Part shown: positions 921 through 56,868 of the stretch, piece after piece
Layout of the letters: each line of letters begins with the position of its first letter
Numbering within the stretch: the stretch's first letter is position 1
Source of the DNA: Microvirga lotononidis
GTDB lineage: Bacteria; Pseudomonadota; Alphaproteobacteria; Rhizobiales; Beijerinckiaceae
Reading direction: 5' to 3'
DNA: 64,000 nt
Assembly: GCF_034627025.1 (NCBI RefSeq)
Contig: NZ_CP141049.1
Coordinates: 868,001 to 932,000 of the forward strand
Position numbers and translations under genes: made by a program
Notes under the pieces: generated by a model
The model's input: only the letters and a program-made list of their open reading frames with translations
Databases searched by the model: none
What the model was told of the DNA's origin: nothing

Positions 921-1484
921 ACCTGCACCAACGTTAGCCACGATCCCATCGACGCGCGAGGCCTGATCCTGCGGTCTTCCTCGGATGCGTACCCTTCGTG
1001 ATCGACGCCTTCGCTCGCAAGATCGTGGGCTGGCGCGTGTCGCGCTCAGCCCGGGCCGCGTTCGTGCTCGATGCCCTGGAGCAGGCTCTCCACGAGCGGC
1101 GACCTCTCCGGCAAGCCAACCTCATTCACCACAGCGATAGAGGGGGTCAATACGTGTCATTTAAGTACACCGAGCGCCTCGCCGAGGCGAGGATTGAGCC
1201 ATCCGTCGGCAGTGTCGGCGACGCGTACGATGCTCTGGCGGAAACCGTCATCGGCCTCTTCAAGACTGAGGTGATCCATCGGCGTGGTCCGTGGCGCTCC
1301 TTTGAGGCCGTCGAATTCGTCACCCTCGAATGGGTCGATTGGTACAACAACCGGCGCCTGCTCGAGTCCATCGGCAGCATTCCGCCCGCCGAGGCGGAAG
1401 CCACCTACTATGCCCAGCTTGAGCTCACGCCGATGGCCGCATAGAATCCAAGCCAATTAGCCTCCGGAAAATCCGGCGCGGTTC
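921..1484 (+). mobile_element. IS3-family remnant, right part only
   Basis: The right end near 1455-1484 reads, on the minus strand, TGAACCGCGCCGGATTTT, typical of an IS3-family terminal repeat. It cuts directly into the serine recombinase gene beyond 1483. The left part of the element including orfA is absent; 921-990 carries no recognisable gene. Confidence 0.6.
992..1444 (+). pseudogene. IS3-family transposase OrfB, C-terminal fragment
   Basis: The frame reads FVIDAFARKIVGW, then HHSDRGGQYVS, then the DWYNNRRLLESIG region ending about 20 residues before the stop: the second Asp and C-terminal part of an IS3 rve (DDE) domain. The N-terminal half of OrfB is missing upstream of about 990, where the frame becomes unrelated. 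This IS3 differs from the three large IS3 copies elsewhere in the window. Its HHSD codons (1128-1140) match exactly a guide-like motif in the IS110 elements. Confidence 0.8.
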
Positions 1485-3917: not shown

Positions 3918-4208
3918 ATGCCCCACACACGCTTTACGAGAGAGTTTCGGGATGAGGCGGTGCGGCTCGCTCTGACCAGCGGCCGCAGCCGACGGGCGAT
4001 TGCTGAGGATCTCGGCGTCGGCCTGTCGACCCTGCGCAGCTGGCTCGACCGTCGCCGTGAGCACGAGATCGACGCTCCGCCCGAGGAGCGGCAGGAGGAC
4101 ATGGCGACCGAGCTGAAGCGGCTGCGGCGCGAGAACGAGATCCTGCGTCAGGAGCGGGAGATCCTCAAACGGGCCACCGCTTTTTTCGCCAAGGAGGGAA
4201 GTCGATGA
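3918..4208 (+). CDS. IS3-family OrfA (copy A)
   Basis: A 96-aa protein beginning MPHTRFTREFRDEAV with a helix-turn-helix (SRRAIAEDLGVGLSTLRSWL, about 25-45) and a leucine-zipper-like tail (ELKRLRRENEILRQEREILK) typical of IS3 OrfA. The start has an AGGAG-type ribosome site. The stop overlaps the orfB ATG by 4 nt (ATGA), with the run of T/C before it typical of IS3 frameshifting into OrfAB. It appears intact, unlike the copy at 49865-50180. Confidence 0.9.
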   Translation: MPHTRFTREFRDEAVRLALTSGRSRRAIAEDLGVGLSTLRSWLDRRREHEIDAPPEERQEDMATELKRLRRENEILRQEREILKRATAFFAKEGSR

Positions 4209-4785
4209 AGCTCCGGTTCATCGATGCGGCGAAAGAGAGCTTCCCCGTCACCCGTCTGTGCCAGGTCCTCGGTGTCAGCCAGAGTGGCTACTTTGCCTGG
4301 AGATCGCGTCCAGCCAGCCCGCGCCAGCGGGAGGATCTGGTGCTGTTGGCCCACATCCGCTCGGCCTTCACCCGCTCGCATGAGACCTACGGCAGTCCAC
4401 GCATGACCCGCGAGCTGCAGGATGAAGGACTGCAAGTCGGTCGCCGTCGGACCGCCCGGCTGATGCGGGAGAATGGCCTCAAGGTGCGGCAGAAGCGGCG
4501 CTTCAAACGCACCACTGACAGCCACCACGCCTTTCCGATCGCACCCAACCTGCTCGAGCAGGATTTCTCAGCCACTCGTCCGAACCAGAAATGGAACGCC
4601 GATATCTCATACGTGTGGACGAACGAGGGCTGGCTGTATCTGGCCGTGGTCCTCGATCTGTTTGCTCGCCGGGTGGTTGGTTGGGCGGTGAGTGACCGGC
4701 TGCACAAGGAACTCGCGCTCGAGGCGCTGCGCAAGGCTCTGGCGATCCGAAGACCCGGCGAGGGGCTGACCCACCACGCGGACAG
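4205..4785 (+). pseudogene. IS3-family OrfB, N-terminal part (copy A)
   Basis: Starts MKLRFIDAAKESFPV. It has the HTH_21 region (ETYGSPRMTRELQDEG), then NQKWNADISYVW with the first catalytic Asp and VVLDLFARRVVGW. The frame reaches THHAD, the equivalent of the HHSD second-Asp motif, and is then replaced by IS110 sequence. The remainder of OrfB is at 7640-7936, beyond the IS110 and IS30. Confidence 0.9.
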
Positions 4786-5069
4786 TAAGTATGCTTAGGC
4801 CAGTGTTCCTGGGCGGCCTGACCCTCACGGCGATAGACCGGCTAACATCACTGGTATCGCAAGGCGCCGGTGTGGCCTGACCCACACGCTGATCGACCAC
4901 AACCCGTGTCTTTCCTCGGACCTGTCGGCCGCCCGGGAGCCTTGCGGTGAGGTTTGCCTCACCGGTGCATGTGACCCAAGAAGGGCCTGACATCCTGTCG
5001 CATTACTGTCCTGTCCAGGCATGCGGTCGTGGTGAACCGTCGATCCACGGTCGAACCAGGAGAGCCGGT
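4786..5069 (+). ncRNA. Putative IS110 bridge RNA region (copy A)
   Basis: IS110-group elements characterised so far encode a structured bridge RNA in the 5' noncoding end, whose loops pair with donor and target DNA. This 284-nt region has two repeated segments that each begin GCCTGACCC (about 4818 and 4876) and many self-complementary stretches. Segment one carries CTCACGGCGATAG (4824-4836), resembling the HHSD codons where the element is inserted. Exact RNA ends are unknown. Confidence 0.45.
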
Positions 5070-6152
5070 ATGGAAGTTGGTCAGGACGTTGTCTTACATC
5101 CCGTTGTCGGCGGGGTCGACACGCACAAAGATCTTCACGTCGCCGCTGTTGTCGACGAACACGACCGTGTTCTCGGGACCCAGTGCTTTGCGACAACCCG
5201 ACAGGGATATCGGCAGATGCTCGCCTGGATGCGCTCCTTCGGACAGCTCCGGTGCGTTGGCATTGAGGCCTCAGGCACCTATGGCGCCGGGTTGCTGCGC
5301 TCCATGCAGAATGCCGGTGTCGAAGTTCTGGAGGTCACGGCTCCGGATAAACCGGACCGGCGCAAGCGGGGCAAGAACGATGATCTCGACGCTCAGAACG
5401 CCGCGCATGCCGCCTTTGCCGGCAAGCGCACCGTCACGCCCAGAAGCCGGGATGGCATGATCGAATCCTTGCGCGTTCTCAAGGCGTGTCGAAAGACAGC
5501 AGTGGTGGCGCGGCGCATCGCGTTGCAGATGATCCAGAACACCATCGTCTGCGCGCCGGACGGGTTGCGGGAGGCGCTGCGCCAGATGACCCGCATGCAG
5601 CTGGTCAGGACCTTGGCGGCATGGCGGCCTGACCTGACTGACTACCGCAATGTGGATTCCGCCTATAGGATCAGCCTCAAGTCGCTCGGCCGCCGCTATG
5701 TCGAACTGCACGATGAGATTGCCGACTTGGACGTTATGATCGGTGCCATTGTCGATGAACTTGCCCCCAACCTCGTGGCCCGGAACTCGATTGGTCACGC
5801 AGGGGCGGCCCAGTTGCTCCTGACAGCGGGGGACAATCCGGAGCGCTTGCATTCCGAGGCCGGCTTTGCCGCACTCTGCGGTGTCAGCCCGGTCCCAGCC
5901 TCGTCCGGCAAGACGACGCGCCACCGTCTCAACCGGGGTGGTGATCGAGCCGCCAACAGTGCTCTGCACATCATTGCGATCGGGAGGCTTCGGACCGATC
6001 CGCGAACCAAGGCCTACATGGCTAAACGCGTCGCTGAAGGCCACTCCAAGCTTGAGGCGATCCGGTGCCTGAAGCGCTACATCGCGCGCGAGGTGTTCAC
6101 CCTAATCAGCCAGCGGCAAAAGGAGATCAACCAGGCTCGGATCACCGCTTGA
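5070..6152 (+). CDS. IS110-family transposase (copy A)
   Basis: A 360-aa DEDD transposase. The start at 5070 ([20 protein letters not shown]) has an AGGAG site 8 nt upstream; the frame is open further upstream but that part lies in the noncoding region. The N-terminal RuvC-like domain shows [22 protein letters not shown] and the [11 protein letters not shown] block; the C-terminal Tnp domain shows [40 protein letters not shown] with the catalytic Ser region, and RRGGD-like NRGGDRAAN. Full length and free of frameshifts; identical in protein to the copy at 47921-49003. Confidence 0.93.
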   Translation: MEVGQDVVLHPVVGGVDTHKDLHVAAVVDEHDRVLGTQCFATTRQGYRQMLAWMRSFGQLRCVGIEASGTYGAGLLRSMQNAGVEVLEVTAPDKPDRRKRGKNDDLDAQNAAHAAFAGKRTVTPRSRDGMIESLRVLKACRKTAVVARRIALQMIQNTIVCAPDGLREALRQMTRMQLVRTLAAWRPDLTDYRNVDSAYRISLKSLGRRYVELHDEIADLDVMIGAIVDELAPNLVARNSIGHAGAAQLLLTAGDNPERLHSEAGFAALCGVSPVPASSGKTTRHRLNRGGDRAANSALHIIAIGRLRTDPRTKAYMAKRVAEGHSKLEAIRCLKRYIAREVFTLISQRQKEINQARITA

Positions 6153-6180
6153 CAAACAGAAGGGCGTCCGCGGCAGCCAG

Positions 6181-23514: not shown

Positions 23515-24090
23515 GGTTCCACTCATCGATGCGGCGAAAGAGAGCTTCCCCGTCACCCGTCTGTGCCAGGTGCTCGGAGTGAGCCAGAGCGGCTACTTCG
23601 CCTGGAGATCCCGTCCGGCCAGTCCGCGCCAGAGAGAGGACTTGGTGCTGCTGGCTCATATCCGCTCGGCCTTCGCGCGTTCGAAGGAGACCTACGGCAG
23701 TCCCCGTATGACTTGCGAGTTACGGGGTGACGGGCTGCAAGTCGGTCGCCGTCGGACCGCTCGGCTGATGCGGGAGAATGGGCTCAAGGCCCGGCAGAAG
23801 CGCCGCTTCAAGCGCACCAACGATAGCCACCATGCCTTTCCGATCGCGCCCAACCTGCTCGAGCGGGACTTCTCGGCCGAGCGCCCGAACCAGAAGTGGG
23901 CTGCGGATATCTCCTACCTGTGGACGAACGAGGGCTGGCTGTACTTGGCGGTGATCCTCGATGTCTTCGCCCGCAGGGTCGTCGGCTGGGCGGTGAGCGA
24001 TCGCCTGCACCAGGAGCTGGCTCTCGAGGCGCTGCGCACGGCTCTGGCGGTCCGGCGACCGGGCAAGGACCTGATCCACCACAGTGATAG
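23511..24090 (+). pseudogene. IS3-family OrfB, N-terminal part (copy B)
   Basis: The ATG at 23511 leads into a frameshift within eight codons (MRFHSSM instead of the expected FIDAAKES), after which the good frame runs from about 23525: SFPVTRLCQVLGVSQSGYFA, WAADISYLWTNEGWLYLAVI. It ends at IHHSD, where the IS110 begins. Confidence 0.85.
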
Positions 24091-24376
24091 TAAGTATGCC
24101 CTTACCAGTGTTCCTGGGCGGCCTGACCCTCACAGCGATAGACCGTTTAGAGTGGCTGGTGCCGCAAGGTGTCCCGGCGTGGGCCTGACCCACACTCTGA
24201 TCGACCAGATCCGTGTCTTTCCCCGGACCTGTCGGCCGCCCGGGAGCCTTGCGGTGAGGTTTGCCTCACCGATGCATTTGACCCAAGAAGGGCCTGACTT
24301 CCTGTCGCGTTGCTGTCCTGTCCAGGCACCCGGTCTCGGTAAACCGTCGGTCCAAGGTCTGCCTGGGAGAGCCGGT
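24091..24376 (+). ncRNA. Putative IS110 bridge RNA region (copy B)
   Basis: Same architecture as in copy A: two segments starting GCCTGACCC at 24121 and 24183. The first contains CACAGCGATAG (24131-24141), which matches the target flank CACAGTGATAG (24080-24090) at 10 of 11 bases and an unoccupied IS3 HHSD site (about 1130-1140) at 11 of 11. This is what a left target guide would look like. Confidence 0.5.
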
Positions 24377-25425
24377 ATGGAAGTTCAGGAGGTTACACCG
24401 CATCTCGTCGTAGGTGGCGTCGACACGCATAAAGATCTTCATGTCGCCGCTGTTGTCGACGAACACGACCTGTTCTCGGGACCCAGTGCTTTGCAACAAC
24501 ACGAAAGGCTATCGGCAGATGCTCGCCTGGATGCGGTCGTTCGGACAGCTGCGGTGCATCGGCGTTGAGGCCACAGGCACCTACGGCGCCGGGCTGCTGC
24601 GCTCCATGCAGAACGCCGGTGTCGAGGTTCTCGAGGTGACGACCCCGGAGAAACAGGACCGGCGCAAGCGTGGAAAGAACGATGATCTCGATGCTCAGAA
24701 CGCCGCCCATGCGGCCTTTGCCGGCAAGCGCACCGTCACGCCCAAAACCCGTGACGGGATGATCGAGTCCCTCCGGGTCCTCAAAGCCTGCCGAAAGACA
24801 GCGCTCGCCGCCCGCCGTGTCGCGCTGCAGATGATCCACAACACGATCATCTGCGCACCCGATGATCTTCGGGACACCTTGCGCAAGATGACCCGCATGC
24901 AACTCGTCAGGACCTTGGCGGCCTGGCGGCCGGATCTGACAGATTATCGCGACGTCATCTCCGCCCACAGGATCAGTCTCAAGTCGTTGGGTCGCCGATA
25001 CCTTGAACTGCACGATGAGATTGCTGACCTGGATGCTATGATCGGTGCCATCGTCGATGAACTCGCCCCCAACCTCGTGGCCCGGAACTCGATTGATCAC
25101 GCAGGGGCGGCCCAGCTGCTCCTCACAGGCCGGCGACAATCCGAAACACTTACACTCTGAGGCCGGCTTTGCCGCCCTTTGCGGTGTCAGCCCGGTTCCG
25201 ACCTCGCCCGGCAAGACGACGCGCCATCGCCTCAGTCGAGTGGGCGACCGAGCCGCCAACAGCACCCTGCACATCATTGCCATCGGCAGGCTCCGGACCG
25301 ACCCGCGAACCAAGGCCTACATGGCCAAGCGCATGGCTGAGGGCCATTCCAAGCTTGAGGCGATCCGGCGTCTCAAACGCTACATCGCTCGCGAAGTGTT
25401 CACCCTAATCGGCCAGCGGCAATAG
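24377..25425 (+). pseudogene. IS110-family transposase (copy B), two frameshifts
   Basis: From [20 protein letters not shown] at 24377 the frame breaks after DEHD (deletion near 24470), resumes as [20 protein letters not shown], breaks again near 25130 after AAQLLLT, and resumes [20 protein letters not shown] to the stop at 25425. All catalytic regions can be recognised across the frames but no full protein can be made. Confidence 0.88.
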
Positions 25426-25461
25426 GAGATCAACCAGGCTCGTATCACCGCTTGACAAACA

Positions 25462-26438
25462 GAAGGGCGTCCGCGGCAGCCAATATTGTGCGACGGCCTA
25501 TCAGGCGGAGCTGGAGAAACATAACATCCGGATCTCCATGTCCGGAAAAGGCAATTGCTTCGAGAACGCCGCTGTCGAGAGCGTCTTCAAGAGCTTGAAA
25601 TCTGAGCTGATCTGGCGCACCGTCTTTGAGCTGAGAGCCGAGGTCAAGCAGGCGATCGGCTGGTGCATCGATGGCGTGCGCCATATCACCTGGCGCTGGA
25701 TCCCTTTCGCAGAAAGGAGGGGTTTGGAAGAAATGACCCTTGGGCCAACGGCTTACCTGGCGGTCAAAACCAAAGGGGACAGTAGCATGCCGTCGAAGCG
25801 GAAATGGTCCGAAGACGCTTACGGCCATGGTCTGCAAGGCCCGCGCGATAAGGTGAGAGCCGCATTGCTCGAACCTCAGCCTCCAGTGATGCAAATGTAC
25901 ATCCCTCGACACAGCGTCTGAGGTCGGGGCCACCGCGATGGAGCGGCAAAGCCGTCGTCGCTCGAACCTTCCACGCGATGGACGATGGGGAATAACCCCA
26001 TTCAAGGAGACGGACGAGGCACCTACGTCGCGCTCGGGACGTCCAGCATCAAGGGAATATGGGATCGCCCACCGCGCCGCGAGGCGCAGGGCGACGGAGC
26101 CACCGTAGTACTCTGAGGACGGGAAAGCCGTCCACATGGGGAAGGGTGGCAGGTGTCCTGAAACCCGAACGGCGAGGTACGCGAGATGCGAAACGCCAAA
26201 ACCGTGTTGGGAATCATCCACAACCGCTCTGCGGTTGTGGAGGACACTGGAGAGCCGGGTGCTCCTAACAGCGCAAGCCCGGTTCGGGGAGAGGCGGTTG
26301 GAAAAGTGCCGGCGACGGCAACTCGCTAGCCGCCTACTCTACTTTTACAACCCGCCCACCGCCATTCGACACTCGATTATGTCAGTCTGGTTCAGTTCGA
26401 AAGGCCGGCCGAATAGCAAACAAACCGCTCTCCATTAA
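25462..26438 (+). pseudogene. IS3-family OrfB, C-terminal part split by group II intron (copy B)
   Basis: Exon 1 reads [40 protein letters not shown] and ends in CIDG at 25675. Exon 2 starts FYNP at 26343, but one extra C after about 26356 puts HRRHSTLDYVSLVQFER-like sequence out of frame. Even perfect splicing would not restore this gene. Confidence 0.8.
25676..26342 (+). mobile_element. ORF-less group II intron (667 nt), copy 1
   Basis: The 5' end is GTGCG, matching the group II consensus, and the 3' end is AC. A 34-nt domain V lies at 26252-26285: the GAGCCGGG/CCCGGTTC stem, a 2-nt bulge AG and a UAAC-containing loop. Domain VI follows with an unpaired A region. Domain IV is only a hairpin (CCACAACCGC/GCGGTTGTGG, about 26218-26240), so no reverse transcriptase is encoded. 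Boundaries follow from the intron-less IS3 copy A. An apparently identical copy is at 42955-43621. Confidence 0.75.
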
Positions 26439-26453
26439 ACTGAAGCAAGTCCA

Positions 26454-37367: not shown

Positions 37368-37440
37368 CTTCCCGGATGCACCACTAAGTAGGTCTTCATA
37401 AGACTTGCAACGCAAGCACTGCGGGTGTTCCCTGGAGAGC

Positions 37441-37934
37441 ATGCAACACCATGATCACTCTCCCGAAACGTGGCTCGACGAGGCGGATCGCAAGCGGCTT
37501 ACTGCCGCGCTTTCTGGTGCCCGTGAGGCCCGGGTGTATCGCCGCCTCGAGGCGCTGCTGCTGGTGGCCGAGGGCCATCCCGTCGCCGAGGCGGCCCGCC
37601 GCTGCCGGGTCAACCGCTCCAGCGTGCACCGCTGGCTCGTCCAGTACCGAGCCGAGCATGAGGCCACGGCCCTGATCGACCGGCCGCGCAGCGGACGTCC
37701 CCGCCGTCAGCCGAGGCTCACGCCGCAGCGGCTGGCGGCGGCCCTGGCGCGCGACCCGCGCCGCTGCGGCTACCAGGCTACGAGCTGGACGGTGCCGCTG
37801 CTGGCCCACGACCTGGCCGCGAAGGGCCTCGCGGTCAGCCGCCAGACGCTGCGGCGGCGGCTGCACGAAGCCGGCTATCGTTGGAAGCGGCCGCGCTATG
37901 TCTATGTCGCGCGCGCGGCTCACCTGCCGCAGAA
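37441..37934 (+). pseudogene. IS630-family transposase, N-terminal half (element 2, copy A)
   Basis: Starts MQHHDHSPETWLDEADRKRL, with helix-turn-helix EAARRCRVNRSSVHRWLVQY and the winged-helix RRCGYQATSWTVPLLAHDLA. The frame ends HLPQKK at the A5G slippery site, where the IS110 is inserted. Confidence 0.88.
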
Positions 37935-38008
37935 AAAGATCTCATGGGCCAGCGACCGCCGAACTGGTGAAGTAAGGCGGTCACCTCACCTCACCCTGGA
38001 GGCCGCTC

Positions 38009-39160
38009 ATGTTCTCCTCTCCCTCAGCCGACGCTTCAGTCTCGGACAGCACCCACACGATCTATCTCGCCCTTGAACTCAGCCGCCGCTCCTGGCTGGT
38101 GGCGCTGCATGCCCCCGATGCCGCGAAGATCGAGCTGCATCGGCTTCCCGCCGGTGATGGACAGGCGGTGCTCGACCTGCTTGCCCGCATCCGGACCCGC
38201 GTGGAACGACGCACCGGCGTGAGCCCACATGTATCGTGCTGCTACGAGGCCGGCCGCGACGGGTTCTGGCTGCACCGCCTTCTCGAGGCGCACGGCGTCA
38301 GCAGCCATGTCATGGACCCGAGTTCGCTGCAGGTCGACCGCCGGGCCCGGCGGGCCAAGACGGACCGCCTGGATGCCCAGGCTCTGCTGCGGGCGCTGAT
38401 GGCCTGGTCCCGCGGCGAGCCGAAGGTCTGCTCCATGGTCCGCCCACCGTCCCCGGACGAGGAGGATGCGCGTCGTCCGAGCCGCGAGCGGGCCACGCTG
38501 CTGCAGGAGCGCATTCGCCTGGTCAACCGGATCAAGGGGCTGTGCGCGACGCAAGGGATCGACGACTACGAGCCGCTGCGGCCGGATCGCCGCTCGCGCC
38601 TGGCGCAGCTGATCACGGGGGATGGCCGGCCGCTGCCGCCGCGGCTGTCGGCGGAGATCGCGCGTCAGCTCGACTGGCTCGAACTGGTCCTGCGGCACCT
38701 GGCCGAGGTCGAGACGAGGCGCGATGCCGACGCGGCGGCGGCACGAGCCGCGTCCTCGTCCAAGCTTGGGACCTTGCTGCATCTGAGGGGGATCGGCTCT
38801 GAGATTGCAACTGTCCTCGCCAAGGAGGTGTTCTACCGATGCTTTGCCAGCCGGCGCCACGTGGCTGCCTATGCGGGACTGACCCCCAGCCCGTTTGCGA
38901 GCGGCCGCCGCTCGCGCGAGCAAGGGATTACCAAGGCGGGCAACGCCCGCGCCCGCAAGGCGCTGATCGAACTCGCCTGGCTGTGGTTGCGCAACCAGCC
39001 TGACAGTGCACTCGCGGTCTGGTTCCGCAGCCGTGTGGGGTCGGCCACCGGGCGGGTCAGACGCATTGCAATTGTGGCGCTCGCCCGTAAGCTGCTGATC
39101 CTGTTGTGGCGCTATGTCGAAACAGGCGCCCTGCCAGCCGATGTGGCCGTGAAGCCCTGA
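38009..39160 (+). CDS. IS110-family (IS1111 group) transposase in IS630-2, copy A
   Basis: A 383-aa protein with a CTGGAGG site 8 nt before the ATG. DEDD domain: YLALELSRRSWLVALHAPDA, CCYEAGRDGFWLHRLLEAHG and RAKTDRLDAQALLRALMAWS. C-terminal Tnp domain: LLHLRGIGSEIATVLAKEVF, HVAAYAGLTPSPFASGRRSR with the catalytic Ser region, and KAGNARARKALIELAWLWLR. Intact; the inverted copy at 54139-55290 differs by one residue (LVNR/LVNQ). Confidence 0.93.
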   Translation: MFSSPSADASVSDSTHTIYLALELSRRSWLVALHAPDAAKIELHRLPAGDGQAVLDLLARIRTRVERRTGVSPHVSCCYEAGRDGFWLHRLLEAHGVSSHVMDPSSLQVDRRARRAKTDRLDAQALLRALMAWSRGEPKVCSMVRPPSPDEEDARRPSRERATLLQERIRLVNRIKGLCATQGIDDYEPLRPDRRSRLAQLITGDGRPLPPRLSAEIARQLDWLELVLRHLAEVETRRDADAAAARAASSSKLGTLLHLRGIGSEIATVLAKEVFYRCFASRRHVAAYAGLTPSPFASGRRSREQGITKAGNARARKALIELAWLWLRNQPDSALAVWFRSRVGSATGRVRRIAIVALARKLLILLWRYVETGALPADVAVKP

Positions 39161-39681
39161 ACCCGCTTGCGCACTGGCGCGGGAGTGTCAGCGCGTGATG
39201 TCTGAGGGGAGTGCGACCGCGTTGTCCCCCCTGGCTGGAACAATGCCGCGAAAAAGAATGGTCGCGCTCACCCCGGAGCCCGTTCCCGACGCATGCGGGA
39301 TTATGGTCAGGGCTTGGGCCCAACCGGATATAAGGTGATGCGGACGAACGGTTCGCATGAGCGCCATCGGGCTCAGCCTCGGAGGTCACCGCAAACTGTC
39401 GAATCCCGCCCTTGAGTAGACGGACAGTGTCGGAGCGAGTTGCCCTCGGGCAGTCTCCAGGATGGCTTGGAGCTTCGGCCGGCCCTCAAGCCCTGCGCCT
39501 GCGGCGCACCGCGAAGCGGCTGCGGGACTTGACCGCCCGCCTCGCCCAAGCTGAGAGCCGCCATGCCAGAATGGCAGGCTTTGAACTCGGCTTCCTTTGG
39601 TTCGACCCTGTCGGCCAGGTCAAACTCTGACTTCGATCCGGCACACCGCCTGCCAGCGCTTGACGGATCGGCCCATATAAG
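39161..39681 (+). other. Long 3' noncoding end of the IS1111-type IS110, copy A
   Basis: This 521-nt end has no convincing gene (a 72-aa ORF at 39412-39630 has no ribosome site). It contains many self-complementary stretches. In IS1111-group elements the long noncoding end lies on this side and may encode the guide RNA; that is inference here. Confidence 0.45.
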
Positions 39682-40277
39682 GGGGGATCACCCGACGCCT
39701 GAAGGCGGGCTGGCACAGGAGCGATCGGCTGCTGTGCCTCGACTGGACGCTGCTGCGGCTGTTTCCGCCGCTGCGCGCGACCTGGGCGCTCAAGGGCACG
39801 CAGGCCCTCGTGCCGATCACCGGCCGCAATGCCAAGCGGGTGCTGTTCGGGGCGATCGACTTGCAAAGCGCGCGTCGGGTGGTGCTGATCCGCACCCGTG
39901 CCGGTCAGGCCGATGCCCAGGCGTTCCTGCGTGCGCTGCGGCGCCGCTACCGCAAGGCTGGCTGGCTCTGGCTGCTCACCGATCGGGCGAGCGCCCACAC
40001 TGCCCCGCAGACCCAAGCCCTGGCCGACCGGCTGCGCATCCGGTTCGTGTGGTTGCCCCGGCAGGCGCCCGAACTGAGCCCGATGGATCAACTCTGGCGC
40101 GAGCTCAAGCGGCTGATCGCGGCCAACCGGCAGGCGGCTTCCATCGATGCTCTGGCCGCCGAGGCCGCAGCCTGGGTGCTGACGCTGACGCCGCAACAAG
40201 CGTTCCGCAAGGCCGGCATGCTGTCCAAACGCTTCTGGCTCAGAAAGCTGTTGCAGAACTTTTGGCGACCTACTTAG
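39682..40277 (+). pseudogene. IS630-family transposase, C-terminal half (element 2, copy A)
   Basis: The frame resumes GITRRLKAGWHRSDRLLCLD with the first Asp, ALVPITGRNAKRVLFGAIDL, WLWLLTDRASAHTAPQ with the second Asp, and PELSPMDQLWRELKRLIAAN with the Glu. It stops at 40275-40277 in the terminal repeat. With 37441-37934 it would give a complete transposase if the IS110 were removed. Confidence 0.88.
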
Positions 40278-42352: not shown

Positions 42353-42858
42353 GCCTCCAAAGCACGAGGCAGATCGGTACAATACCCTTGTTCTTGGTTC
42401 GGCTTTTATTCGGCGGGCAAAGTACGTTCATGTTTGGCCTTTGAGAAGGTGGTGCAGCGCGACAAAGGGAGCCAGGAGACAAATTGCGCGGGTCAAAGCA
42501 TAGTGAACCGGCAACGCCCTACGATTGTGTTTTGGAAAGGCGAGTGCGGCAGAAAGTTGTGCGGCGCCGCCAACTCCATTGCACCCTGGTCGCCGGTTAT
42601 CGTGGATGCCGGCAATAGGCGAGCCAGCCCCGGATGGTTATGCGGTCTTTGAAGAGAGATGAGACTACCAGGCGCTACGCCGCTTGCTCTTCTGGGTCAG
42701 CCGCGGGTTCAATGGCCAGGCGGCTCCGATCCTGCCCTGTCGGGTCGCGCAAGGTAGCGTGGCCGCGCGCCCGCGGCAGGTGTTTCGCAGGTACAGGCGA
42801 GTGGCCATCGGAGAGGCCCCACCTTATGGGCACGGCACGTGATGGGATTTGCCCCGCA
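42353..42858. other. Unassigned stretch after nopX
   Basis: 506 nt without a supported gene in either strand. Short ORFs at 42434-42652 and 42634-42915 lack ribosome sites and are Arg/Cys-rich. The last bases run directly into a truncated IS3 right end. Confidence 0.4.
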
Positions 42859-42954
42859 TTAGTGGAGAGCGGTTTGTTTGCTATTCGGCCGGCCTTTCGA
42901 ACTGAACCAGACTGACATAATCGAGTGTCGAATGGCGGTGGGCGGGTTGTAAAA
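42859..42954 (-). pseudogene. IS3 OrfB, exon after the group II intron (copy C)
   Basis: FYNP and the following codons, with the same extra C as in copy B that shifts the RRHSTLDYVS segment. Identity to copy B on this side of the intron suggests exchange between the two copies. Confidence 0.75.
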
Positions 42955-43621
42955 GTAGAGTAGGCGGCTAGCGAGTTGCCGTCGCCGGCACTTTTCCAAC
43001 CGCCTCTCCCCGAACCGGGCTTGCGCTGTTAGGAGCACCCGGCTCTCCAGTGTCCTCCACAACCGCAGAGCGGTTGTGGATGATTCCCAACACGGTTTTG
43101 GCGTTTCGCATCTCGCGTACCTCGCCGTTCGGGTTTCAGGACACCTGCCACCCTTCCCCATGTGGACGGCTTTCCCGTCCTCAGAGTACTACGGTGGCTC
43201 CGTCGCCCTGCGCCTCGCGGCGCGGTGGGCGATCCCATATTCCCTTGATGCTGGACGTCCCGAGCGCGACGTAGGTGCCTCGTCCGTCTCCTTGAATGGG
43301 GTTATTCCCCATCGTCCATCGCGTGGAAGGTTCGAGCGACGACGGCTTTGCCGCTCCATCGCGGTGGCCCCGACCTCAGACGCTGTGTCGAGGGATGTAC
43401 ATTTGCATCACTGGAGGCTGAGGTTCGAGCAATGCGGCTCTCACCTTATCGCGCGGGCCTTGCAGACCATGGCCGTAAGCGTCTTCGGACCATTTCCGCT
43501 TCGACGGCATGCTACTGTCCCCTTTGGTTTTGACCGCCAGGTAAGCCGTTGGCCCAAGGGTCATTTCTTCCAAACCCCTCCTTTCTGCGAAAGGGATCCA
43601 GCGCCAGGTGATATGGCGCAC
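42955..43621 (-). mobile_element. ORF-less group II intron (667 nt), copy 2
   Basis: Reverse complement of the intron at 25676-26342, with the same length and same insertion point (IDG/FYNP of IS3 orfB). Its 5' exon differs (CGACGGC here, CGATGGC in copy B), so the flanking IS3 copies are distinct. The internal ORFs are identical in sequence to copy 1. Confidence 0.75.
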
Positions 43622-43745
43622 GCCGTCGATATAACGCCCAATCGCATCCTTGGCCGCAGCTCGTGTCTGGAACACCGTGCGCCAGACCAATTCGGATTTC
43701 AAGGTCTTGAAGAAGGTCTCGACAGCGGCGTTGATGCTCCTATAG
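43622..43745 (-). pseudogene. IS3 OrfB, middle exon (copy C)
   Basis: Reads NAAVETFFKTLKSELVWRTV, FQTRAAAKDAIGRYIDG, including the catalytic Glu. Bounded by IS110-E upstream and the intron downstream. Confidence 0.8.
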
Positions 43746-47815: not shown

Positions 47816-47913
47816 TAACAGTTGCCTTTGCCGGACATCGAGATCCGGATGCTATGCTTCTTCAGCTCCGCCTGATACTCGATCGAACAATACTGGCTGC
47901 CACGGACGCCCTT
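47816..47913 (-). pseudogene. IS3 OrfB, segment between the two IS110 insertions (copy C)
   Basis: Reads [33 protein letters not shown], then IS110-E. It joins in frame to THHAD on the other side of IS110-C and to NAAVETFF at 43745. Confidence 0.8.
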
Positions 47914-47920
47914 CTGTTTG

Positions 47921-49003
47921 TCAAGCGGTGATCCGAGCCTGGTTGATCTCCTTTTGCCGCTGGCTGATTAGGGTGAACACCTCGCGCGCGATGTAGCGCT
48001 TCAGGCACCGGATCGCCTCAAGCTTGGAGTGGCCTTCAGCGACGCGTTTAGCCATGTAGGCCTTGGTTCGCGGATCGGTCCGAAGCCTCCCGATCGCAAT
48101 GATGTGCAGAGCACTGTTGGCGGCTCGATCACCACCCCGGTTGAGACGGTGGCGCGTCGTCTTGCCGGACGAGGCTGGGACCGGGCTGACACCGCAGAGT
48201 GCGGCAAAGCCGGCCTCGGAATGCAAGCGCTCCGGATTGTCCCCCGCTGTCAGGAGCAACTGGGCCGCCCCTGCGTGACCAATCGAGTTCCGGGCCACGA
48301 GGTTGGGGGCAAGTTCATCGACAATGGCACCGATCATAACGTCCAAGTCGGCAATCTCATCGTGCAGTTCGACATAGCGGCGGCCGAGCGACTTGAGGCT
48401 GATCCTATAGGCGGAATCCACATTGCGGTAGTCAGTCAGGTCAGGCCGCCATGCCGCCAAGGTCCTGACCAGCTGCATGCGGGTCATCTGGCGCAGCGCC
48501 TCCCGCAACCCGTCCGGCGCGCAGACGATGGTGTTCTGGATCATCTGCAACGCGATGCGCCGCGCCACCACTGCTGTCTTTCGACACGCCTTGAGAACGC
48601 GCAAGGATTCGATCATGCCATCCCGGCTTCTGGGCGTGACGGTGCGCTTGCCGGCAAAGGCGGCATGCGCGGCGTTCTGAGCGTCGAGATCATCGTTCTT
48701 GCCCCGCTTGCGCCGGTCCGGTTTATCCGGAGCCGTGACCTCCAGAACTTCGACACCGGCATTCTGCATGGAGCGCAGCAACCCGGCGCCATAGGTGCCT
48801 GAGGCCTCAATGCCAACGCACCGGAGCTGTCCGAAGGAGCGCATCCAGGCGAGCATCTGCCGATATCCCTGTCGGGTTGTCGCAAAGCACTGGGTCCCGA
48901 GAACACGGTCGTGTTCGTCGACAACAGCGGCGACGTGAAGATCTTTGTGCGTGTCGACCCCGCCGACAACGGGATGTAAGACAACGTCCTGACCAACTTC
49001 CAT
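47921..49003 (-). CDS. IS110-family transposase (copy C)
   Basis: A 360-aa protein identical to that of copy A (5070-6152): [33 protein letters not shown], and [20 protein letters not shown]. The start is set at 49003 by the same AGGAG site. Intact, so the element is a plausible active transposon. Confidence 0.93.
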
Positions 49004-49288
49004 ACCGGCTCTCCTGGTTCGACCGTGGATCGACGGTTCACCACGACCGCATGCCTGGACAGGACAGTAATGCGACAGGATGTCAGGCCCTTCTTGGGTC
49101 ACATGCACCGGTGAGGCAAACCTCACCGCAAGGCTCCCGGGCGGCCGACAGGTCCGAGGAAAGACACGGGTTGTGGTCGATCAGCGTGTGGGTCAGGCCA
49201 CACCGGCGCCTTGCGATACCAGTGATGTTAGCCGGTCTATCGCCGTGAGGGTCAGGCCGCCCAGGAACACTGGCCTAAGCATACTTAC
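49004..49288 (-). ncRNA. Putative IS110 bridge RNA region (copy C)
   Basis: Same sequence as the 5' noncoding region of copy A, with the motif CTCACGGCGATAG at about 49237-49249 on the minus strand. Confidence 0.45.
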
Positions 49289-49868
49289 TGTCCGCGTGGT
49301 GGGTCAGCCCCTCGCCGGGTCTTCGGATCGCCAGAGCCTTGCGCAGCGCCTCGAGCGCGAGTTCCTTGTGCAGCCGGTCACTCACCGCCCAACCAACCAC
49401 CCGGCGAGCAAACAGATCGAGGACCACGGCCAGATACAGCCAGCCCTCGTTCGTCCACACGTATGAGATATCGGCGTTCCATTTCTGGTTCGGACGAGTG
49501 GCTGAGAAATCCTGCTCGAGCAGGTTGGGTGCGACCGGAAAAGAGTGATGGCTGTCGGTGGTGCGCGTGAACCGCCGCTTCTGCCGCACCTTGAGGCCGT
49601 TCTCCCGCATCAGCCGAGCGGTTCGACGGCGACCCACCGTCAGGCCCTCATCCTGCAGCTCGCGGGTGAGGCGCGGGCTGCCATAGGTCTCATGCGAGCG
49701 GGTGAAGGCCGAACGGACATGGGCCAGCAGAACCAGGTCCTCCCGCTGGCGCGGGCTGGCTGGACGCGATCGCCAGGCGAAGTAGCCACTCTGGCTGACA
49801 CCGAGGACCTGGCACAGACGGGTGACGGGGAAGCTCTCTTTCGCCACATCGATGAACTGGAACTTCAT
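49289..49868 (-). pseudogene. IS3 OrfB, N-terminal part (copy C)
   Basis: Starts MKFQFIDVAKESFPVTRLCQ; the first ~115 residues differ from copy A at several positions (for example SPRLTRELQDEGLTVGRR), then become identical up to THHAD. This mosaic pattern points to gene conversion. Confidence 0.85.
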
Positions 49869-53431: not shown

Positions 53432-53617
53432 TTTGCAAGTCGATCGCCCCGAACAGCACCCGCTTGGCATTGCGGCCGGTGATCGGCACGAGGGCCTGCG
53501 TGCCCTTGAGCGCCCAGGTCGCGCGCAGCGGCGGAAACAGCCGCAGCAGCGTCCAGTCGAGGCACAGCAGCCGATCGCTCCTGTGCCAGCCCGCCTTCAG
53601 GCGTCGGGTGATCCCCC
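53432..53617 (-). pseudogene. IS630-2 transposase, middle part (copy B)
   Basis: Reads GITRRLKAGWHRSDRLLCLD to NAKRVLFGAIDLQ, between the IS110 and the IS21. Together with 50584-51018 and 55365-55858 it makes up the transposase. Confidence 0.82.
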
Positions 53618-55364
53618 CTTATATGGGCCGATCCGTCAAGCGCTGGCAGGCGGTGTGCCGGATCGAAGTCAGAGTTTGACCTGGCCGACAGGGTCGAACC
53701 AAAGGAAGCCGAGTTCAAAGCCTGCCATTCTGGCATGGCGGCTCTCAGCTTGGGCGAGGCGGGCGGTCAAGTCCCGCAGCCGCTTCGCGGTGCGCCGCAG
53801 GCGCAGGGCTTGAGGGCCGGCCGAAGCTCCAAGCCATCCTGGAGACTGCCCGAGGGCAACTCGCTCCGACACTGTCCGTCTACTCAAGGGCGGGATTCGA
53901 CAGTTTGCGGTGACCTCCGAGGCTGAGCCCGATGGCGCTCATGCGAACCGTTCGTCCGCATCACCTTATATCCGGTTGGGCCCAAGCCCTGACCATAATC
54001 CCGCATGCGTCGGGAACGGGCTCCGGGGTGAGCGCGACCATTCTTTTTCGCGGCATTGTTCCAGCCAGGGGGGACAACGCGGTCGCACTCCCCTCAGACA
54101 TCACGCGCTGACACTCCCGCGCCAGTGCGCAAGCGGGTTCAGGGCTTCACGGCCACATCGGCTGGCAGGGCGCCTGTTTCGACATAGCGCCACAACAGGA
54201 TCAGCAGCTTACGGGCGAGCGCCACAATTGCAATGCGTCTGACCCGCCCGGTGGCCGACCCCACACGGCTGCGGAACCAGACCGCGAGTGCACTGTCAGG
54301 CTGGTTGCGCAACCACAGCCAGGCGAGTTCGATCAGCGCCTTGCGGGCGCGGGCGTTGCCCGCCTTGGTAATCCCTTGCTCGCGCGAGCGGCGGCCGCTC
54401 GCAAACGGGCTGGGGGTCAGTCCCGCATAGGCAGCCACGTGGCGCCGGCTGGCAAAGCATCGGTAGAACACCTCCTTGGCGAGGACAGTTGCAATCTCAG
54501 AGCCGATCCCCCTCAGATGCAGCAAGGTCCCAAGCTTGGACGAGGACGCGGCTCGTGCCGCCGCCGCGTCGGCATCGCGCCTCGTCTCGACCTCGGCCAG
54601 GTGCCGCAGGACCAGTTCGAGCCAGTCGAGCTGACGCGCGATCTCCGCCGACAGCCGCGGCGGCAGCGGCCGGCCATCCCCCGTGATCAGCTGCGCCAGG
54701 CGCGAGCGGCGATCCGGCCGCAGCGGCTCGTAGTCGTCGATCCCTTGCGTCGCGCACAGCCCCTTGATCTGGTTGACCAGGCGAATGCGCTCCTGCAGCA
54801 GCGTGGCCCGCTCGCGGCTCGGACGACGCGCATCCTCCTCGTCCGGGGACGGTGGGCGGACCATGGAGCAGACCTTCGGCTCGCCGCGGGACCAGGCCAT
54901 CAGCGCCCGCAGCAGAGCCTGGGCATCCAGGCGGTCCGTCTTGGCCCGCCGGGCCCGGCGGTCGACCTGCAGCGAACTCGGGTCCATGACATGGCTGCTG
55001 ACGCCGTGCGCCTCGAGAAGGCGGTGCAGCCAGAACCCGTCGCGGCCGGCCTCGTAGCAGCACGATACATGTGGGCTCACGCCGGTGCGTCGTTCCACGC
55101 GGGTCCGGATGCGGGCAAGCAGGTCGAGCACCGCCTGTCCATCACCGGCGGGAAGCCGATGCAGCTCGATCTTCGCGGCATCGGGGGCATGCAGCGCCAC
55201 CAGCCAGGAGCGGCGGCTGAGTTCAAGGGCGAGATAGATCGTGTGGGTGCTGTCCGAGACTGAAGCGTCGGCTGAGGGAGAGGAGAACATGAGCGGCCTC
55301 CAGGGTGAGGTGAGGTGACCGCCTTACTTCACCAGTTCGGCGGTCGCTGGCCCATGAGATCTTT
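53618..55364 (-). mobile_element. IS110-family (IS1111-type) element inside IS630-2, copy B
   Basis: Position-for-position inverted copy of 37935-39681, including the 520-nt 3' noncoding end (53618-54138). Confidence 0.78.
54139..55290 (-). CDS. IS110-family (IS1111 group) transposase in IS630-2, copy B
   Basis: A 383-aa protein differing from the copy at 38009-39160 by one residue (LVNQIKG for LVNRIKG). All DEDD and Ser-region motifs are intact, so both copies could be active. Confidence 0.93.
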   Translation of the reverse strand: MFSSPSADASVSDSTHTIYLALELSRRSWLVALHAPDAAKIELHRLPAGDGQAVLDLLARIRTRVERRTGVSPHVSCCYEAGRDGFWLHRLLEAHGVSSHVMDPSSLQVDRRARRAKTDRLDAQALLRALMAWSRGEPKVCSMVRPPSPDEEDARRPSRERATLLQERIRLVNQIKGLCATQGIDDYEPLRPDRRSRLAQLITGDGRPLPPRLSAEIARQLDWLELVLRHLAEVETRRDADAAAARAASSSKLGTLLHLRGIGSEIATVLAKEVFYRCFASRRHVAAYAGLTPSPFASGRRSREQGITKAGNARARKALIELAWLWLRNQPDSALAVWFRSRVGSATGRVRRIAIVALARKLLILLWRYVETGALPADVAVKP

Positions 55365-55858
55365 TTCTGCGGCAGGTGAGCCGCGCGCGCGACATAGACA
55401 TAGCGCGGCCGCTTCCAACGATAGCCGGCTTCGTGCAGCCGCCGCCGCAGCGTCTGGCGGCTGACCGCGAGGCCCTTCGCGGCCAGGTCGTGGGCCAGCA
55501 GCGGCACCGTCCAGCTCGTAGCCTGGTAGCCGCAGCGGCGCGGGTCGCGCGCCAGGGCCGCCGCCAGCCGCTGCGGCGTGAGCCTCGGCTGACGGCGGGG
55601 ACGTCCGCTGCGCGGCCGGTCGATCAGGGCCGTGGCCTCATGCTCGGCTCGGTACTGGACGAGCCAGCGGTGCACGCTGGAGCGGTTGACCCGGCAGCGG
55701 CGGGCCGCCTCGGCGACGGGATGGCCCTCGGCCACCAGCAGCAGCGCCTCGAGGCGGCGATACACCCGGGCCTCACGGGCACCAGAAAGCGCGGCAGTAA
55801 GCCGCTTGCGATCCGCCTCGTCGAGCCACGTTTCGGGAGAGTGATCATGGTGTTGCAT
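55365..55858 (-). pseudogene. IS630-2 transposase, N-terminal half (copy B)
   Basis: Same protein as 37441-37934: MQHHDHSPETWLDEADRKRL to HLPQKK, ending at the slippery run occupied by the IS110. Confidence 0.88.
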
Positions 55859-55914
55859 GCTCTCCAGGGAACACCCGCAGTGCTTGCGTTGCAAGTCTTA
55901 TGAAGACCTACTTA

Positions 55915-56868
55915 GAGGCTGGTGAGCAATTATCTTTCTTTTCGCGTGAGGCGACGCAGCAGGATGCGGCTCATGGCGAGATAGAGCAGCATCTCGCCGG
56001 TCTCGACGAGCCGCTCATAGTCCTTGGCCAGCCGCCGGTTGGTGGTCAGCCAACCGATGGTCCGTTCCACCACCCATCGGCGTGCGAGCACCTGAAAGCC
56101 GCTCGGGCGCGGCGGCGGCTCCGCGTCAGCCCGCATCCAGACGCCGCCGCTCCACCAGTGCTGCGGAATGGACAGCTTCCATCCGAGCGCTCTGGACAAC
56201 CAGTCCTTTAATCCGCGATAAGCGGTGTCGGCCCACATCAGCTCGATGGCGGGGAAGAGATGGTGCAGCCCCTCCAACAGGAGCTCGGCCCCGGCGCGAT
56301 CGTGGATGTCGGCGGGATGCACGCTGTTCTTCAGCAGATTGCCTTGCGTATCAACGAGAAGATGACGCTTGCGACCCTTGATCTTTTTGCCGCCATCATA
56401 GCCGCGTGGTCCGCCCATCTCAGAGGTCTTGACCGATTGGCTGTCGATGATCGCGGCGGTCGGCTGCGGTGCGCGGCCGCTCTGACAGCGATAGCTCTCG
56501 CGCAGAACCTGGGTCACGTGTTCCCACGTGCCGTCGTCACGCCACTGGGCATAGTGATAGAAAACGGCACAGCGCGGAGGATACTCGTGTGGCAGCAGCC
56601 GCCACTGCGCTCCGGTGCGTAACAGATAGAAGATGGCATCGACGACGCGTCGGAGCGGATAAGTCTGCCGTCGCCCGGCCGGATGGCTGCGGGAGACAAG
56701 GGGCGCAAGCAGGGCCCATTCGGCATCAGTGAGATCGCAGGCGTAGGAACTGGCATCCATGGCGGGGCTCCCAGACCGTCAAACAGCCCACATCCGCCGC
56801 AGCAGTCAGCACCAAATCTATTCTGAATCAATGATTTACATTGAGCAATAAAATTGCTCACCAGCCTC
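55915..56868 (-). mobile_element. IS5-family (IS1031-type) element
   Basis: The inverted repeats GAGGCTGGTGAGCAATT (55915) and AATTGCTCACCAGCCTC (to 56868) are flanked by TTA (55912-55914 and 56869-56871). It is inserted right at the edge of the IS630 copy, whose terminal T and TA form the duplicated TTA. Confidence 0.88.
55930..56760 (-). CDS. IS5-family transposase
   Basis: A 276-aa protein. N-terminal DUF4096-type region (LTDAEWALLAPLVSRSHPAG, AIFYLLRTGAQWRLLPHEYP); PTAAIIDSQSVKTSEMGGPR with the first Asp, ELMWADTAYRGLKDWL with the second, and RRWVVERTIGWLTTNRRLAK with the Glu. Intact single ORF. Confidence 0.95.
   Translation of the reverse strand: MDASSYACDLTDAEWALLAPLVSRSHPAGRRQTYPLRRVVDAIFYLLRTGAQWRLLPHEYPPRCAVFYHYAQWRDDGTWEHVTQVLRESYRCQSGRAPQPTAAIIDSQSVKTSEMGGPRGYDGGKKIKGRKRHLLVDTQGNLLKNSVHPADIHDRAGAELLLEGLHHLFPAIELMWADTAYRGLKDWLSRALGWKLSIPQHWWSGGVWMRADAEPPPRPSGFQVLARRWVVERTIGWLTTNRRLAKDYERLVETGEMLLYLAMSRILLRRLTRKER

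What the first reader, a model, noticed from the sequence alone, without database searches (positions are those of the whole stretch)
24091..24376. IS110 5' noncoding region carries a motif matching its own target (bridge-RNA guide candidate)
Three IS110 copies (4786, 24091, 47914) sit at the same IS3 orfB codons (HHSD-K/R). Their 5' noncoding regions carry CTCACRGCGATAG. In copy B, CACAGCGATAG (24131-24141) matches the occupied target flank at 10/11 bases and an unoccupied IS3 HHSD site (about 1130-1140) at 11/11. A second segment begins with the same GCCTGACCC and could be the donor loop. IS110 bridge RNAs are established; use of a guide against the conserved catalytic codons of IS3 transposases would make this a transposon that specialises in parasitising and inactivating other transposons.
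Basis: partly seen in the sequence, partly recalled or inferred. Interest (0 to 1): 0.82.

Follow-up and report, generated by a model that had tools for sequence, protein, structure and literature searches.

The report
Transposon guide RNA with two aims
These are jumping genes that use a guide RNA to land in the catalytic core of other jumping genes; that habit was already published for a relative, but here the guide RNA appears to carry two alternative left-hand target guides sharing one right-hand guide, which would let one element hit two kinds of victim.

Summary
Three IS110 copies (A 4784-6168, B 24089-25471, C 47905-49289) sit after the second catalytic Asp codon of IS3-type transposases, and their 5' noncoding region carries target-like sequence. 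What I did not find in print (eight searches) is the anatomy of this mainly alphaproteobacterial group (closest named member ISMch6): two left target guides in tandem, LTG1 and LTG2, each behind a copy of the same stem strand, with one right guide and one shared 3' stem strand. The donor loop is a third segment. At three informative bases, 33 of 36 insertions equal LTG1 or LTG2 (permuted mean 22.7): 18 LTG1, 15 LTG2. In Ferirhizobium, two copies identical over 1382 bp lie at an N-T-D target (fits LTG1) and an H-S-D target (fits LTG2). The right guide fits whichever left guide was used. Two mutually exclusive stems are both conserved with compensatory changes, though not every covariation measure stands out. 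Best reading: a two-target bridge RNA. That both guides are used is well supported; the folding switch is inferred, and there is no experiment.

The parts
4784..6168 (+). IS110 copy A (1385 bp), closest named relative ISMch6
   Evidence: junctions from comparison with relatives; 82.3% protein identity to ISMch6
4805..4818 (+). copy A S1, 5' stem strand for fold I
4826..4834 (+). copy A LTG1 (CACGGCGAT)
4857..4877 (+). copy A S2, 5' stem strand for fold II
4885..4893 (+). copy A LTG2 (CACGCTGAT), 7 of 9 to its own target CACGCGGAC (LTG1 6 of 9)
4911..4918 (+). copy A right target guide (TTTCCTCG), proposed to be shared by both left guides
4927..4947 (+). copy A S3, shared 3' stem strand pairing with S1 or S2
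4979..5007 (+). copy A donor-binding segment (LDG AGAAGGGC 4979-4986; RDG TTACT 5003-5007)
   Evidence: RDG base covaries with donor base 4 in 56 of 56 contexts that could be parsed, 4 of 60 not parsed
5070..6152 (+). copy A IS110 recombinase, 360 aa
   Evidence: PF01548 and PF02371 above cut-off
24089..25471 (+). IS110 copy B (1383 bp, 86% identical to A), recombinase reading frame broken
24110..24123 (+). copy B S1
24131..24139 (+). copy B LTG1 (CACAGCGAT), 8 of 9 to its target CACAGTGAT (LTG2 7 of 9)
24162..24185 (+). copy B S2
24193..24201 (+). copy B LTG2 (CACTCTGAT)
24218..24225 (+). copy B right target guide (TTTCCCCG)
24234..24254 (+). copy B S3
24286..24314 (+). copy B donor-binding segment; its RDG reads TTGCT, one base off the donor complement
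47905..49289 (-). IS110 copy C, identical to A
49239..49247 (-). copy C LTG1
47921..49003 (-). copy C recombinase
   Evidence: identical to A
4205..4783 (+). left half of the IS3-type orfB interrupted by copy A, ending H-H-A-D
   Evidence: PF00665 and PF13276 in ORF 4205-4798
1130..1140 (+). unoccupied IS3-type H-S-D site matching LTG1 of copy B
   Evidence: PF00665 in ORF 998-1444

Best explanation
The 5' noncoding region of this IS110 group encodes a bridge RNA whose left target arm is present twice in tandem. Each copy consists of a stem strand (S1 or S2) followed by a left target guide (LTG1 or LTG2) of about 9 nt that reads like H-x-D or N-x-D codons. There is one right target guide (RTG) pairing with the codon after Asp and the following GG, one 3' stem strand (S3), and a donor loop downstream. 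S1 and S2 are alternative partners of S3: when S1 pairs with S3, LTG1 faces the RTG; when S2 pairs, LTG2 does. One element can thereby insert into two classes of IS3-type transposase gene (for example N-T-D-Q-G-S-Q-F and H-S-D-R/Q-G-S-Q-Y), tolerating third-codon-position changes, and interrupts the victim gene at its second catalytic Asp. Shown by sequence: two guides, their agreement with targets, the shared RTG, two conserved exclusive stems. Inferred: that both folds form in the RNA-protein complex and that the switch selects the target. Whether the arm was gained in this group or lost in the single-guide group is not settled.
For: Target match at bases -9, -6, -5 (chosen after seeing the table, as the bases that separate codon classes): 33 of 36 dual-guide contexts equal one of the two guides (permuted mean 22.7, 0 of 20,000 reach it), 18 LTG1 and 15 LTG2; in 36 of 36 the two guides differ there. 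Over all nine bases: 269 of 324 against 244.6 permuted, same limit. LTG1 alone explains 73 of 108 informative cells and LTG2 alone 72, the better of the two 105. Same-organism pairs: L033 and L129, identical over 1382 of 1382 bp, at CATTCCGAC (LTG1 5 of 9, LTG2 7) and AACACCGAT (LTG1 9, LTG2 7); L145 and L147, 1381 of 1382, at AACACCGAT (8 and 7) and AACAGCGAT (7 and 8). Single-guide relatives match their only guide in 20 of 20. RTG: in LTG1-type insertions bases +1 and +2 pair in 31 of 32 cells (16 of 19 contexts usable; permuted 25.0, p 0.0005); a column scan finds the same RTG column best for LTG1-type, LTG2-type and single-guide insertions. Stems on 32 dual sequences: S1:S3 96.8% of cells paired, 28 cells changed on both sides against 8.6 shuffled; S2:S3 95.3%, 41 against 12.6; 0 of 500 shuffles for these measures, and both use columns 150-163. 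The dual/single label needs one change on the protein tree of 28 dual, 13 single and 6 outside rows.
Against: No RNA or transposition data. Permutations and shuffles do not remove relatedness, and the stem structures were written from one of the aligned sequences (L139). Two stricter stem measures are weaker: pairs with a double change (6 against 3.6, 8 of 500; 7 against 4.6, 24 of 500) and further pair types (64 and 197 of 500). Three dual contexts (L003, L097, L112) match neither guide at the informative bases. In L145 and L147 the margin between the guides is one base. LTG1 is odd in L068 and L116 (TACTGCGAT, TGCTGCGAT), which have largely lost fold I (about -33 against -62 kcal/mol). Computed fold preference does not predict the guide used: L094, L139 and L140 favour fold I yet match LTG2, while L034, L038 and L046 favour fold II yet match LTG1. 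In LTG2-type insertions alone the RTG +1/+2 test is borderline (23 of 28, p 0.053), and the RTG column's runner-up for LTG1-type insertions (column 171) is close in raw score, 3.94 against 4.29 of 5, though not in excess over permutation. L039, dropped from the RTG test, fits the RTG poorly.
Confidence: 0.72

Rival explanations
1. Two complete target-binding loops in series, each with its own left and right guide.
For: Segment 1 has its own hairpin with a GNRA-like loop after LTG1.
Against: No column of segment 1 is among the six best matches to the right target for LTG1-type insertions; the shared RTG column is the best. Similar hairpin sequence is present in several single-guide relatives, e.g. 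L052, L055, L063, L149.
Confidence: 0.1
2. Segment 1 is a relic of duplication or a structural 5' stem-loop; only LTG2 works and the matches to LTG1 are inherited from past insertions.
For: LTG1 looks odd and fold I is largely lost in L068 and L116, which match LTG2.
Against: Element copies identical over 1382 bp lie at an LTG1-type and an LTG2-type target in one genome; 18 of 36 contexts match LTG1 at the informative bases.
Confidence: 0.07
3. Insertions at the second target class are directed in trans by the RNA of another IS110 element in the same cell.
For: Several genomes of the genus hold other IS110 elements.
Against: The element's own LTG1 already matches; guide sets and target classes agree in 33 of 36 contexts across many genera.
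Confidence: 0.05
4. The shared site reflects composite duplication of one old IS110-in-IS3 insertion, not targeting.
For: A and L004 share 600 of 600 flank bases.
Against: Left flanks across genera are different transposase sequences, and identical elements sit in different ones.
Confidence: 0.02

Closest known systems
ISEc21 (IS110 family) and its seekRNA, PMC11187229
   Same: Same target codons of IS3 transposases, same junction, RNA from the 5' noncoding region; its own single guide (CACAGCGAT) and right-guide sequence align with LTG2 and the RTG here (L040 is 1356 of 1374 bp identical to it).
   Different: One left guide only; no LTG1-S1 unit is seen in the ISEc21 copy fetched (L178).
ISMch6 (Methylorubrum), named in PMC11187229 as a naturally redirected ISEc21 relative
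   Same: Closest named relative of the window element (82.3% protein identity); carries both LTG1 CACAGCGAT and LTG2 CACTCTGAT (L139).
   Different: The parts of the main text that I saw (sections 12 and 13 and passages) describe three altered bases in one target-defining region and no second left guide; its supplementary figures were not seen.
IS621 bridge RNA, PMC11208160 and PMC11208158
   Same: Left guide identical to the target top strand, right guide complementary to it, separate donor loop, RNA in the left end.
   Different: IS621 is described with one target-binding loop holding one LTG and one RTG, preceded by a 5' stem-loop; here a second LTG lies upstream of the usual one, and the 3' stem strand has two possible partners.

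Membership tests
IS110 family (IS110 group) | DEDD plus Transposase_20 recombinase | tested here: met
   PF01548 and PF02371 above cut-off; weak match to the IS621 recombinase chain 8wt6_A, E 1.4e-4
IS110 family (IS110 group) | long noncoding left end, short right end | tested here: met
   286 nt before the ATG and 16 nt after the stop in copy A (coordinates checked)
IS110 family (IS110 group) | left-end RNA with target and donor guides agreeing with DNA | tested here: met
   sequence level only: target; donor
IS110 family (IS110 group) | RNA expressed and bound to the recombinase | not testable with these tools
   needs RNA sequencing
ISEc21 subgroup | inserts at the second catalytic Asp codon of IS3 transposases | tested here: met
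   PF00665 in 10 of 10 left flanks tested, picked for an open frame out of 36 dual contexts
ISEc21 subgroup | single pair of target matches in the RNA | tested here: not met
   two left-guide segments in the 36 dual contexts, LTG1 atypical in L068 and L116
IS621-type bridge RNA | one target-binding loop with one LTG | tested here: not met

The most novel reading that the evidence does not exclude
A natural bridge RNA is a two-state switch: one 3' strand and one right guide are shared by two competing left arms, so a single recombinase-RNA pair is multiplexed against two variants of a protein motif written in different codons. That would be the first natural multi-target guide in the bridge-recombinase family known to me (recall plus the searches named in the report).
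Probability: 0.42. Interest if true: 0.87.

Novelty: new variant of a known kind. Interest (0 to 1): 0.74.

Why it matters
If two left guides share one right guide through alternative pairing, bridge RNAs can be naturally multiplexed. That gives a design idea for recombinases with two programmed targets, shows how a guide system can widen its range of targets by duplicating half a loop, and offers a clean case of RNA-guided parasitism of one transposon family by another, aimed at catalytic codons and tolerant of synonymous change.

Tried and rejected
Donor loop in segment 2: rejected, because segment 2 matches targets and the donor base covaries with segment 3. A second right guide in segment 1 (the CTGGC.CC hairpin resembles the complement of GCCAGT): rejected after a column scan of target bases +1 to +5; more distant target bases were not scanned. 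Fold preference as a predictor of the guide used: no relation seen by eye. Rfam: only two group II intron matches at the gathering threshold. More data: searches of the genus (10 of 48 genomes matched, looser limit), then of families, an order and a class added few elements (2 of 298, 4 of 397, 3 of 385, 2 of 82, 1 of 2 and 2 of 297 genomes; the window's own genome is counted and the first three); viral contigs gave 4 loci, not used in the counts. Of the plasmid hits (1154 records, 60 listed), 18 were fetched.

Choices and slips. Which contexts are dual was decided by eye on the alignment. The junction script preferred candidates preceded by GAY or AAY, so the uniformity of the junction is partly built in; the element start AGT (AAT in L036) and the ISEc21 coordinates support it independently. 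In one search the group called single held 21 rows and by mistake included L004, a dual-guide copy; one search gives the corrected 20. In one search the printout of L006 came from the wrong strand and is void; one search repeats it. Four of 60 contexts were dropped before the guide counts: L002 (chimeric left flank; LTG2 7 of 9), L004 (same left context as L001; LTG2 7 of 9), L006 (antisense in an orfA; LTG2 7 of 9) and L041 (no transposase frame on the left; its guide 7 of 9, one informative base off). The RTG statistics used 46 of 60: besides those four, L039 (right flank unlike IS3; poor fit) and nine without a right flank or a parsed RTG were left out. L104 and L069 were left out of the tree because their matched stretch was too short. 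The second ISMch6 copy on its plasmid, L171, has lost its left end and was not counted.

Full report
What is there. The window lies in genome G000, whose genus appears to be Microvirga: a same-genus genome, G036, carries the same match at the same place as the named record of Microvirga sp. Mcv34 (inferred). The window holds three IS110 copies. A (4784-6168, +) and C (47905-49289, -) are identical over 1385 bp; B (24089-25471, +) is 86% identical with a broken recombinase frame. The genome has seven such copies, six identical plus B. The 360-aa recombinase has both IS110 domains and a weak sequence match to the solved IS621 recombinase.

Where it inserts. I compared 60 distinct insertion contexts of the element and its relatives. 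The left junction reads GAY|AGT in 58 of 60; L036 reads GAC|AAT and L094 AAT|AGT. The script preferred such places, so this is partly built in; but the same rule reproduces the published start and 1374-bp length of ISEc21. The right junction, where found (53 of 60), is GGGC(G/A)TC|NNN, NNN being the codon after Asp. The left flank is an open frame over all 100 codons examined in 46 of 60, and most of these read as IS3-type transposases ending H-S-D, H-A-D, N-T-D or N-S-D. PF00665 was found in 10 of 10 left flanks tested, picked for an open frame. Contexts without a clear transposase on the left include L002, L006, L041, L104, L148 and L154.

What was already known. Siddiquee et al. 2024 (PMC11187229; [quoted passage not shown] They mention ISMch6 as a redirected relative with three altered bases. 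Durrant et al. 2024 (PMC11208160; outline, sections 6 and 7 and passages read) and the structural paper (PMC11208158; passages read) describe one target-binding loop with one LTG and one RTG, and a donor loop.

What is new here. Aligned left ends show in one group of elements two consecutive segments, each with a guide-like stretch of the form NANNNNGA[TC] or close to it. Another group, which includes ISEc21, has only the second. The dual group is alphaproteobacterial as far as its hosts are named; the single group is mainly beta- and gammaproteobacterial, with one alphaproteobacterial exception (L104, Poseidonocella). In 36 of 36 dual contexts LTG1 and LTG2 differ at the three bases that separate codon classes. 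The units S1-LTG1 and S2-LTG2 are on average 70% identical (47 to 80%), against 52% for shuffled units, which fits an old tandem duplication. On the recombinase tree the label needs one change (support 87/94; 28 dual, 13 single, 6 outside rows; L104 and L069 absent); the tree does not settle whether the second arm was gained or lost, since L068 and L116 branch apart from the other dual rows.

Do both guides work? At bases -9, -6 and -5, chosen after seeing the table, 33 of 36 dual contexts equal LTG1 or LTG2; the permuted mean is 22.7 and none of 20,000 permutations reached the observed value. Eighteen match LTG1 and fifteen LTG2; three (L003, L097, L112) match neither. Either guide alone explains 73 or 72 of 108 base matches, the better of the two 105; over all nine bases the better guide gives 269 of 324 against 244.6 permuted. 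The 19 contexts of elements with an N-T-D guide and an H-S-D guide split into 12 N-T-D targets, 6 H-S-D targets and one near miss. Strongest are near-identical elements in one organism. The Ferirhizobium copies L033 and L129 are identical over 1382 bp yet lie at H-H-S-D-R-G-S-Q-Y and F-N-T-D-Q-G-S-Q-F. The Antarctobacter plasmid copies L145 and L147 differ at one base of 1382 and lie at AACACCGAT and AACAGCGAT, each closer, by one base, to a different guide of the element. Single-guide relatives match their guide in 20 of 20. Mismatches concentrate at third codon positions: 50 of 55 in the 36 dual rows, and 22 of 22 in 21 rows of which one (L004) was misplaced. Rows are related to one another and the tests do not correct for that.

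One right guide. The sequence TTTCC[NNN] in segment 2 pairs with target bases +1 to +5. In LTG1-type contexts (16 of 19 usable) bases +1 and +2 pair in 31 of 32 cells (permuted 25.0, p 0.0005); in LTG2-type (14 of 17 usable) 23 of 28 (permuted 19.0, p 0.053); over the 46 contexts used, 82 of 92 (permuted 65.1). In a scan of columns the same column is best for LTG1-type, LTG2-type and single-guide insertions; the runner-up for LTG1-type is column 171, in S3, and no segment 1 column is among the best six. The third base of the codon after Asp pairs in only 23 of 46, as at other third positions.

Two exclusive stems. S1 pairs with S3 over 14 bp (96.8% of cells on 32 dual sequences; 28 cells changed on both sides, 8.6 in shuffles) and S2 pairs with S3 over 19 bp (95.3%; 41 against 12.6). 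None of 500 shuffles reaches these values, and sliding the partner lowers pairing to 32-54%. Weaker: pairs with a double change are reached by 8 and 24 of 500 shuffles, further pair types by 64 and 197; and the structures were written from one of the sequences. Both stems use the same 3' columns, so they cannot form together in one molecule. RNAalifold picks the S1 stem. Forced-fold energies lie within 5 kcal/mol of each other in 18 of 32 (my count), fold I lower in 12 of 32; the preferred fold does not predict the guide used. L068, L116 and L154 strongly favour fold II and match LTG2, but L094 strongly favours fold I and also matches LTG2. The switch is thus a hypothesis that explains why both strands are kept; it is not shown.

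Donor side. Base 4 of the element and the facing base in segment 3 covary in 56 of 56 contexts parsed (A with T 24, C with G 32; 4 of 60 not parsed), so segment 3 is the likely donor loop.

Own-genome copies. Of seven copies, L001, L004, L005 and B (L007) lie at clear IS3-type H-x-D sites, L003 at H-H-S-D with a degraded upstream frame, L002 at an H-A-D site with a chimeric left flank, and L006 antisense in what reads as an IS3-type orfA (recognised by eye, no family search) at a site matching LTG2 at 7 of 9.

Literature limits. Searches naming IS110, bridge RNA, two target-binding loops, seekRNA, ISMch6, bridge recombinase, target-binding loop, left target guide, and two-guide or dual-target terms listed no paper whose title or shown abstract start describes two left guides. 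Lists were capped (one search showed 15 of 199), the library lacks most subscription journals and all bioRxiv preprints, and I read no supplement.

Noticed in passing
L001, L002, L003 right flanks (copy A: about 6178 onward): A similar sequence, perhaps the end of an IS30-type element (name from recall, no family search), begins about 10 bp right of the IS110 right junction in three own-genome copies; its reverse complement truncates the left end of L032.
   Followed up: no
26250-26342 (+) and 42955-43047 (-): Group II intron ribozyme matches (Rfam RF00029) inside a 96% inverted repeat (25565-26452 / 42845-43732) just right of copy B.
   Followed up: no
37381-39867 and 53432-55918: A 2487-nt inverted repeat reported as 100% complementary.
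   Followed up: no
G000:C2:974019-975035 and 1040573-1041589 (L030, L031): A second, distant IS110 (43% identical) in the same genome; its targets were not examined.
   Followed up: no
G000:C2:813244-814617 (L006): One own copy lies antisense in what reads as an IS3-type orfA at CAGGCTGAC|CGTGGC, an off-target site resembling LTG2 and the right guide.
   Followed up: partly
L143, L145, L147, L154, L155: Elements beginning AGTCAT have CATGACT in the donor loop; some elements with other starts (L036, L048, L066, L144) have it too, so it is not specific.
   Followed up: partly
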